From the NCBI GenBank assembly GCA_947468275.1, contig CANIKO010000001.1, forward strand, positions 186,001 to 250,000: a stretch of DNA of 64,000 bases, written 5' to 3'. Shown here piece by piece: positions 41,450 to 42,851 of the stretch. Position numbers and translations under genes: made by a program. Under the pieces are notes generated by a model. The model did no database searches. It was given only the letters and a program-made list of their open reading frames with translations, and was not told the DNA's origin. The stretch comes from Bacteroidota bacterium. Lineage in GTDB: Bacteria > Bacteroidota > Bacteroidia > NS11-12g > UBA9320. Position 1 is the stretch's first letter. Each line of letters begins with the position of its first letter.

Positions 41450-42805
41450 TTAACCCCTTGCCCTATTCAATCTGTCATTAATAGCGGGTCCCAATCCATT
41501 GGATTGGAAATTTTCAGTTAAAATTAGCTCTAAATTTAAGCTGTCTAATTCACGCATTGCTGCAAAAAGATTATGAGCAGCCTCTGTTAGTGATTTATTC
41601 GGAGACAAAATCTTTTGGTTTTCAATAGGTAAAAAATCAAATGGTTTATAAAATGCAATGGCTCCGGTTCTGGATTTATCAATTGCAGTTATATCAATTT
41701 CTTTTACAAGTTTCAAAGGGGTTCTGGTGGCATAATGTTTATCCAATTGCCCTGGAGAATTGGGTTTGGAATGGGAAGCAATATTCAAGGCAACTTTTCC
41801 AACACAATCTTCAATTGCTTCAATACTTAATCCGCCAAGTCTTAATATCACAGGGTTTTTATCCTCTTCAAACATTACTATGGTAGATTCTAAACCAACC
41901 TCACACTGGCCACCATCCAAGATATACGAAACTTTATCTCCCAATTGTTCCTCTACATGCTTTGCGGTGGTGGGGCTTACGTATCCAAATGGATTGGCAC
42001 TTGGCGCTGCCAATGGGAAAGGAAGTTCTTTTAATAGTTGTAAAGTAAGAGGATGATTTGGAACCCGTAAACCCACAAATGGCAAACCTGATGTTACCAA
42101 ATCCGGAATGGTTTTACTCTTTGGCAAAATCAAAGTTAACGGTCCTGGCCAAAAGGTATTCGCTAGTTTTTTGGCCTTTTCAGGAAAATGAGTGGCATAT
42201 TTTTCTACTTCTTTTATATCAGAAATATGAACAATTAGTGGATCAAAAAACGGGCGATTTTTTATTGCAAAAATTTCAGTAACCGCTTCTTTATTCAATG
42301 CATTAGCAGCTAAACCGTATACAGTTTCTGTTGGAATAGCAACAACTTTTCCTTCAGTTAACAATTGCGTAGCTTTTGAAAATTGCAGAATTTCTGTCGA
42401 AGCCTTGTCCCCCTTTGAAGGGGGTAGGGGGATGATTTTCTCCCTGGTCCCATTTATCCAATTTTCAATACGCAATCCTACATTATAAATATCATTCATC
42501 ACCTCTTGATCCTTAAAAGTCAAAATGTAATATCCTAATGCAATAAGTCTTTTTTCTCTCTCAATATCTTTGACGTAAATTTCTTTAATACTATGAGAAT
42601 AATCATCTACTTCAATTATTATTTTTAAATCTTTACAATAAAAATCAGCTACGTATTTGTCAATTGGTCTTTGTCTTAAAAATGAAAAACCTAGCATTTG
42701 CTTGTTTCTTAACAATTCACACCATAATCTGACTTCAGCTTTAGTAGCGTTGTTTCGATGCAATTGAGCAAGTTTTTTTAAGTTTTTGTTGTAATGGTGA
42801 AACAT
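41450..42805 (-). CDS. DUF559 nuclease-like domain fused to L-threonylcarbamoyladenylate synthase (Sua5)
   Basis: The 451-residue product joins two unrelated proteins. Residues 1-123 are a DUF559 (Vsr-like, PD-(D/E)XK) domain: MFHHYNKNLKKLAQ, KAEVRLWCELLRNK, GFSFLRQRPIDKYVADFYC (D54) and IIIEVDDYSHS (E65, D67). Residues 124-134 (IIPLPPSKGDK) are encoded by an inverted-repeat arm. Residues about 140-451 are a full YrdC-Sua5 enzyme: VVAIPTETVYGLAANAL, SANPFGYVSPT, STIVMFEE, SPGQLDKHYA. Sua5 makes the threonylcarbamoyl-AMP used for tRNA t6A, normally essential. No ATG remains at the natural Sua5 start, so Sua5 appears to be translated from the inserted unit. The frame has no stop between the parts. 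Confidence 0.88.
   Translation of the reverse strand: MFHHYNKNLKKLAQLHRNNATKAEVRLWCELLRNKQMLGFSFLRQRPIDKYVADFYCKDLKIIIEVDDYSHSIKEIYVKDIEREKRLIALGYYILTFKDQEVMNDIYNVGLRIENWINGTREKIIPLPPSKGDKASTEILQFSKATQLLTEGKVVAIPTETVYGLAANALNKEAVTEIFAIKNRPFFDPLIVHISDIKEVEKYATHFPEKAKKLANTFWPGPLTLILPKSKTIPDLVTSGLPFVGLRVPNHPLTLQLLKELPFPLAAPSANPFGYVSPTTAKHVEEQLGDKVSYILDGGQCEVGLESTIVMFEEDKNPVILRLGGLSIEAIEDCVGKVALNIASHSKPNSPGQLDKHYATRTPLKLVKEIDITAIDKSRTGAIAFYKPFDFLPIENQKILSPNKSLTEAAHNLFAAMRELDSLNLELILTENFQSNGLGPAINDRLNRARG
42406..42434 (-). repeat. Inverted-repeat arm inside the DUF559-Sua5 frame
   Basis: These 29 bases are the exact reverse complement of 42823-42851. The core contains CCCCCTTCAAAGGGGG, itself a near-perfect palindrome able to form a hairpin. 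On the minus strand the arm is translated as IIPLPPSKGDK, joining DUF559 to Sua5. CCCCCTACCCCCTTC-type repeats are scattered in many Bacteroidota genomes. Confidence 0.9.
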
Positions 42806-42822
42806 TAGTTGTAGTGGAAACG

Positions 42823-42851
42823 CATCCCCCTACCCCCTTCAAAGGGGGACA
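42823..42851 (+). repeat. Outer inverted-repeat arm upstream of DUF559
   Basis: These 29 bases are identical to the reverse complement of 42406-42434. The arm begins 17 bases before the DUF559 ATG (42805 on the minus strand) and contains the palindrome CCCCCTTCAAAGGGGG. Confidence 0.9.

What the first reader, a model, noticed from the sequence alone, without database searches (positions are those of the whole stretch)
42406..42851. DUF559 nuclease domain enclosed by perfect 29-bp inverted repeats and fused in frame to sua5
Seen: a 446-bp unit whose ends are exact 29-bp inverted repeats contains one small DUF559 (PD-(D/E)XK-like) reading frame, and its inner repeat is translated as the linker IIPLPPSKGDK into a complete YrdC-Sua5 enzyme with no ATG of its own. 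Known: DUF559 belongs to the Vsr/endonuclease superfamily, and palindromic CCCCCTTCAAAGGGGG repeats are dispersed in Bacteroidota. Inference: the nuclease may mobilise the repeat unit, much as RAYT proteins do for REP elements, and it has taken over translation of an essential tRNA-modification gene.
Basis: partly seen in the sequence, partly recalled or inferred. Interest (0 to 1): 0.85.

Follow-up and report, generated by a model that had tools for sequence, protein, structure and literature searches.

The report
Nuclease gene bounded by triplex-forming repeats
A small DNA-cutting-enzyme gene (DUF559) sits between two copies of a hairpin repeat and reads straight into an essential tRNA-modification gene; across several bacterial phyla such genes nearly always lie beside this repeat type, known since the 1990s without a known mover, and in Bacteroidota they are often inserted, unspliced and in frame, inside essential enzymes.

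Summary
In detail: a perfect 29-bp inverted repeat (chance expectation about 2e-9 in this window) encloses a DUF559 frame that reads through the inner repeat into a complete Sua5. It is one case of a general pattern. The repeats are intrastrand-triplex motifs (BoxC/PIT/TMECO type). In 191 Bacteroidota loci, 144 DUF559 genes carry such a motif on both sides and 179 on at least one, against 0 and 5 of 152 control positions, and 0 and 1 of 40 RAYT-type genes. On plasmids of Cyanobacteria, Proteobacteria and Deinococcota, 15 of 16 DUF559 genes have one nearby. Genomes with DUF559 hold 93% of the Bacteroidia repeat copies (odds ratio about 16). In Bacteroidota the unit often lies in frame inside essential genes (LeuRS, IleRS, ValRS, MetH, RecG, PurL and others), with empty, solo-repeat and partly deleted versions of one site in related species. 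The fold is closest to homing endonuclease I-Bth0305I and Vsr. The RAYT analogy is supported by association; mobilisation is not shown. 'Takes over translation of sua5' is weakened, because relatives without the unit also lack an ATG. I found no earlier report of a DUF559 link to these repeats.

The parts
42823..42851 (-). Left-end (L-type) triplex-motif repeat TCCCCCTTTGAAGGGGGTAGGGGGAT with outer flank GCGTCAGCTGT; similarity to other L-type copies continues to about 42873
42443..42805 (-). DUF559 (PF04480) Vsr/homing-endonuclease-like domain, own ATG at 42805; D54 E65 D67 H71 D80 present
42406..42434 (+). Right-end (R-type) triplex-motif repeat, exact inverse of the left one; outer flank GTCGAAGCCT at 42396-42405; translated as part of the linker IIPLPPSKGDK
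41450..42403 (-). Sua5 (YrdC plus Sua5_C) in the same frame, no ATG of its own
41450..42805 (-). Whole fused frame DUF559-linker-Sua5, 451 aa
42902..44266 (-). Upstream sigma-54-type response regulator gene, next to sua5 also in relatives without the unit; flank of the empty site

Best explanation
The unit is a member of a widespread repeat-plus-nuclease system. A small Vsr/I-Bth0305I-like nuclease (DUF559) is encoded between two inverted copies of an intrastrand-triplex-forming palindrome (BoxC/PIT type), its cognate ends. By inference, the nuclease recognises the hairpin/triplex ends (probably when single-stranded) and makes the break from which repair copies or moves the ends, alone as solo repeats or with the nuclease gene. 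Full units move rarely and solo ends more often, as with REPs and RAYTs. Because both ends are open in the sense frame, units can settle inside coding sequence; in one DUF559 clade (mostly in-frame inserts) they sit in loops of essential enzymes, where frameshifts and imprecise deletions are selected against. In the window the unit (from another, mostly free-standing clade) lies between an ntrC-type gene and sua5 and is read through as an N-terminal extension of Sua5. Shown: association, fold, conserved catalytic residues, in-frame placement, presence/absence and decay of units. Inferred: end recognition, cutting, mobility, protection by essential genes.
For: Triplex motif on both sides of 144/191 Bacteroidota DUF559 genes, 0/152 control positions, 0/40 Y1_Tnp genes (the two locus sets overlap in a few loci); at least one side in 15/16 DUF559 genes on plasmids of Cyanobacteria, Proteobacteria and Deinococcota, 3/32 control windows. 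Repeat copies: 736 of 793 lie in the 159 of 396 Bacteroidia genomes with strong DUF559; at least 3 copies in 52 genomes with against 7 without, odds ratio 16, p 2e-16. Window repeat only in G000, G005, G006, G007 of 38 family genomes. In-frame internal insertion in over 20 host families. MetH site: full, internally deleted, solo-repeat and empty states in one genus. LeuRS site filled in G004, empty in G000, G002, G005, G006. AF2 model pLDDT 88; best folds 3hrl Z 16.8, I-Bth0305I Z 13.4, Vsr Z 10.7. Catalytic residues invariant in 89 sequences; dN/dS 0.07-0.13. Element divergence G000-G007 (pS 0.49) below both flanks (0.67-0.68), hinting at lateral spread.
Against: No transposition, no strain-level insertion and no target duplication were seen. 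DUF559 copies within a genome are mostly 34-65% identical, so the gene itself is not in a recent burst. Seven genomes with 3 or more repeats lack strong DUF559; G006 keeps repeats without DUF559. RAYT-type genes are also commoner in repeat-rich genomes. The triplex detector was written after the pattern was seen, although the same settings were applied to the controls. E. coli ycjD has a strict motif on one side only.
Confidence: 0.66

Rival explanations
1. The dispersed repeats are moved by RAYT (Y1/HUH) transposases that live in the same genomes; DUF559 merely sits between two repeats.
For: G000 has six Y1_Tnp matches; strong Y1_Tnp hits occur in 31 of 39 repeat-rich genomes against 11 of 25 repeat-free ones by my count.
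Against: The 40 Y1_Tnp genes examined are flanked by other palindromes (such as CGACCCCGAAGGGGTCG) and never by triplex motifs on both sides (0/40, against 144/191 DUF559). Eight of 39 repeat-rich genomes have DUF559 but no strong Y1_Tnp.
Confidence: 0.1
2. DUF559 is a homing endonuclease: it cuts the uninterrupted allele of its host gene and is copied in by homologous repair; the repeats are only tolerated, frame-keeping borders.
For: Closest fold after 3hrl is I-Bth0305I; the same loops in LeuRS, IleRS, MetH and RecG are hit repeatedly; element divergence between G000 and G007 is below that of both flanks.
Against: One DUF559 clade sits in many unrelated genes and closely related domains occupy different genes. 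It does not explain solo end copies of both types elsewhere in the genome, nor free-standing intergenic units. Homing could still act as a second step.
Confidence: 0.14
3. The repeats are unstable triplex DNA that causes breaks; DUF559 is a host repair nuclease kept nearby, and neither is mobile.
For: Triplex repeats are linked to instability in E. coli (PMC4666352); a DUF559 protein of Caulobacter, VsrA, is linked to DNA damage when a methylase is missing (PMC12907096).
Against: Repair genes need no flanking copies of their substrate and do not insert in frame into over 20 unrelated genes; full, solo and empty states at one site point to an inserted unit.
Confidence: 0.08
4. Ordinary domain fusion: DUF559 was recruited as a functional domain of Sua5 and the other enzymes.
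For: The fused frame is open in three species with low dN/dS.
Against: Unrelated hosts, the same kind of repeats at the borders, empty sites in close relatives, decayed remnants; the G007 copy lost the catalytic Glu yet the frame persists.
Confidence: 0.02

Closest known systems
BoxC / PIT / TMECO intrastrand-triplex repeats (Holder et al. 2015, PMC4666352, and earlier work cited there)
   Same: Same repeat architecture: pyrimidine arm, loop, purine arm, short spacer, G-rich third strand. E. coli inverted pairs always join one type A and one type B motif, like the two end types here. E. coli ycjD (DUF559) has a copy about 160 bp beyond its 3' end.
   Different: Described as intergenic in E. 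coli; the authors found no associated mobility gene. DUF559 association and in-frame coding insertions were not reported there.
REP/REPIN with RAYT transposases (PMC3116915, PMC2817692)
   Same: Low-copy nuclease gene flanked by inverted palindromes, with solo palindromes dispersed in the genome.
   Different: The enzyme is a PD-(D/E)XK Vsr-like nuclease instead of a Y1 HUH transposase; the palindromes are of another family; RAYT genes in overlapping genomes have their own REPs.
EDxHD/Vsr-type homing endonucleases (I-Bth0305I)
   Same: Fold (Z 13.4, rmsd 2.6 over 95 residues).
   Different: No intron or intein found; palindromic ends; many unrelated host genes.
Rickettsia palindromic elements (reviewed in PMC10969869)
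   Same: Palindromic element inserted in frame in unrelated protein genes and translated.
   Different: RPEs are about 150 bp; no nuclease gene is described with them in the passages read.

Membership tests
DUF559 (PF04480) | Pfam match over the curated cut-off | tested here: met
   85.8 bits against cut-off 20.6
PD-(D/E)XK, Vsr / I-Bth0305I group | Shared fold over most of the domain | tested here: met
   3hrl Z 16.8, 3r3p Z 13.4, 1cw0 Z 10.7
PD-(D/E)XK, Vsr / I-Bth0305I group | Nuclease activity | not testable with these tools
   Acidic/His residues invariant in 89 sequences; no assay
Intrastrand-triplex (BoxC/PIT) repeats | Hairpin with purine arm and mirror-symmetric G-rich third strand | tested here: met
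   Both window repeats found by the detector
Intrastrand-triplex (BoxC/PIT) repeats | Forms a triplex in solution | not testable with these tools
   The fold tool does not model triplexes
REP/RAYT | Y1 HUH transposase encoded between the palindromes | tested here: not met
   The enclosed gene matches DUF559; Y1_Tnp genes have other flanks
REP/RAYT | Solo palindromes dispersed, tied to presence of the gene | tested here: met
   (works like; not membership)
Intein- or intron-borne homing endonuclease | Splicing element around the nuclease | tested here: not met
   No Rfam match in 20 insert loci; no intein-type domain among Pfam matches of 21 fused proteins
Classical IS or MITE | Target-site duplication | tested here: inconclusive
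   Empty sites lie in variable loops and are too diverged
Mobile element in general | Present/absent at one site between relatives | tested here: met
   sua5, LeuRS and MetH sites

The most novel reading that the evidence does not exclude
DUF559 nucleases are the long-missing mobility partner of BoxC/intrastrand-triplex repeats throughout bacteria: a class of transposase-independent elements whose triplex-forming ends are acted on by a Vsr-like nuclease, and which in Bacteroidota persist as unspliced in-frame passengers inside essential enzymes.
Probability: 0.5. Interest if true: 0.95.

Novelty: new variant of a known kind. Interest (0 to 1): 0.85.

Why it matters
BoxC/triplex repeats have been known since the 1990s, occur in more than 260 genomes and are tied to genome instability, and the main paper states that no mobility gene was found near them (PMC4666352). 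A conserved nuclease family bound to them across several phyla gives that question a testable candidate, including one in E. coli K-12 (ycjD). It also suggests a role for DUF559, and shows essential enzymes carrying whole nuclease domains in frame without any splicing element.

Tried and rejected
A profile of eight diverse domains was too diverged for the genome-contig scan; a closer set worked. Chance inverted repeat: rejected. Splicing (intron or intein): no match. RAYT as the partner of these repeats: flanks differ. Recent burst of DUF559 copies: mostly not seen, apart from a tandem pair at 84% identity. Clean empty site of ycjD in E. coli: strains without ycjD carry an efflux operon there, so no simple empty site. 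Phages: only two hits, at 30-35% identity. Target duplications: not resolvable. Literature: 14 papers name DUF559, none of them also holds 'inverted repeat'; most subscription journals and bioRxiv preprints are not covered.

Full report
The observation. Reading the window confirms the finding at its coordinates: 42406-42434 and 42823-42851 are exact reverse complements over 29 bp, the expected number of such pairs is about 2e-9, and they enclose one DUF559 frame that continues in frame through the inner repeat into a complete Sua5. The repeats are not just palindromes. Each is a hairpin followed by a G-rich tail whose sequence mirrors the purine arm (TCCCCCTT-TG-AAGGGGG-TA-GGGGGAT), the layout of a purine-motif intrastrand triplex; a detector written for that layout finds these two copies and one weak AT-richer match in the whole window.

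The window's own lineage. In 38 genomes of the family the Sua5 fusion exists only in G000 (window), G005 and G007; the closest relative by Sua5, G006 (86% identity), has an empty site, as have G002, G003 and G004. The window repeat, searched as a 25-mer with up to three mismatches, occurs only in G000 (6), G005 (5), G006 (9) and G007 (2); the other 34 genomes and the reversed-pattern control give none. Six of the nine G006 copies carry mismatches, as expected if DUF559 was lost there and its repeats decay. Solo copies are of two kinds, one with the outer flank of the left end of the unit and one with that of the right end. DUF559 is under purifying selection in the three species (dN/dS 0.07-0.13). 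Between G000 and G007 it is less diverged at synonymous sites (0.49 +- 0.06) than sua5 (0.67) and the upstream gene (0.68), a hint of lateral spread. Sua5 lacks an ATG in the empty relatives G006, G003 and G002 too, so the missing ATG does not show that the unit took over translation.

The wider pattern. In a sample of 396 Bacteroidia genomes 191 have DUF559 matches, 159 of them strong by my cut, and many lie in frames of 700-1400 aa. These frames are housekeeping proteins with DUF559 inserted in frame: LeuRS at several sites, IleRS, MetH at two sites, acetyl-CoA synthetase, RecG, RecJ, a methylmalonyl-CoA mutase fusion, UvrD- and RecB-like helicases, HsdR, Eco57I-type and type ISP restriction enzymes, SpoIIE phosphatases and a class III CoA transferase; a second set of 80 named loci adds ValRS, MetRS, PurL, UvrA, MiaB, CinA, urocanate hydratase and a CCA-adding enzyme. 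All 80 of those nearest relatives are inside larger frames, many in cultured isolates (Tenacibaculum, Flavobacterium, Winogradskyella, Marinilabilia), so this is not an assembly artefact. The domain tree puts most internal inserts in one supported clade (63 rows, SH-aLRT 97) and the window unit in another clade of mostly free-standing units (16 rows, 99).

Sites in different states. At one MetH site within a single genus some species carry the full insert; G419 keeps both repeats with only the first part of DUF559, still in frame; G387 and G473 carry a solo repeat; most are empty. The LeuRS site is filled in G004 and empty in G000, G002, G005 and G006 of the same genus. One LeuRS (L102) carries two further solo repeats in frame.

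Specificity of the repeat association. With a simple inverted-repeat score, 64 of 115 DUF559 genes reach 12 or more against 3 of 666 shifted control positions. With the triplex detector, 144 of 191 have a motif on both sides and 179 on at least one; controls give 0 and 5 of 152; 40 Y1_Tnp (RAYT-type) genes give 0 and 1. The Y1_Tnp genes have their own, different palindromes. The 191 loci come from two searches that share a few loci, and species are related, so the counts are not independent events; the contrast is nonetheless very large. A class-wide count of one common repeat form gives 793 copies in 86 genomes, 736 of them in genomes with strong DUF559 (odds ratio about 16 for three or more copies, p 2e-16); within one genus the difference is p 0.002, or 0.04 after two copies per unit are subtracted.

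Beyond Bacteroidota. The same detector finds a motif beside 15 of 16 DUF559 genes on plasmids of Cyanobacteria, Alpha- and Gammaproteobacteria and Deinococcota, on both sides in 8, against 3 of 32 control windows. E. coli K-12 ycjD, a DUF559 gene, has a BoxC copy about 160 bp beyond its 3' end. BoxC/PIT/TMECO repeats are the described intrastrand-triplex repeats; their authors report instability around them, inverted pairs that always join a type A and a type B motif, and no gene for mobility nearby (PMC4666352). I therefore read the window unit as one instance of a general DUF559-triplex-repeat system.

Mechanism. AlphaFold gives a confident model (pLDDT 88) whose closest solved folds are 3hrl, the homing endonuclease I-Bth0305I and Vsr; five acidic/His residues are invariant in 89 sequences, inserts included. 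A DUF559 protein of Caulobacter, VsrA, is linked in vivo to a DNA damage response (PMC12907096). The most likely working is a nuclease that acts on its own repeat ends, with solo ends spreading more often than whole units, since DUF559 copies within a genome are mostly 34-65% identical. End recognition, cutting and movement are inferred, not shown. In-frame life inside essential genes probably protects the unit, because frameshifts and imprecise losses would kill the host gene; that too is inference.

Verdict. Observation confirmed; interpretation partly supported: the RAYT analogy holds at the level of association, the translation claim is weakened. The system works like REP-RAYT but fails RAYT membership, because the enzyme is of another superfamily.

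Noticed in passing
L102 (LeuRS of G341): One LeuRS frame carries, besides the DUF559 insert, two further in-frame solo repeats (SERLTPNPSPKERGAG and NSPSPLEKGQGDEA): the repeats alone also enter coding sequence.
   Followed up: partly
L015 / L027 (G007 sua5 locus): The G007 DUF559 copy reads IIVADGYSH where the others have an IEVDG-type motif: the catalytic Glu is lost although the fused frame stays open.
   Followed up: no
G000:C1:166162, C9:104829, C1:253146 (outside the window): The window genome has six Y1_Tnp (RAYT-type) matches; those examined are not flanked by the DUF559-type repeat, so two repeat systems coexist.
   Followed up: yes
L058 (G135) and L098 (G133): Tandem pairs of free-standing DUF559 units side by side (84% identical in L058).
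   Followed up: partly
L364, L365 (E. coli strains without ycjD): Where ycjD is missing, a TetR regulator and an RND efflux operon lie next to fabI instead.
   Followed up: partly
L367, L368, L370, L371 (cyanobacterial plasmids): DUF559 genes lie next to DUF1156 or PglX-type methyltransferase genes, as in defence islands.
   Followed up: no
L025, L029, L030 (sua5 of G006, G003, G002): sua5 frames without any ATG before the conserved core even where no unit is inserted: possible non-AUG start in this genus.
   Followed up: partly
G006:C2:43569-43716 (L222): An inverted pair of one R-type and one L-type repeat, about 124 bp apart and with tails outward, enclosing no DUF559; resembles the type A + type B pairs reported for E. 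coli.
   Followed up: partly
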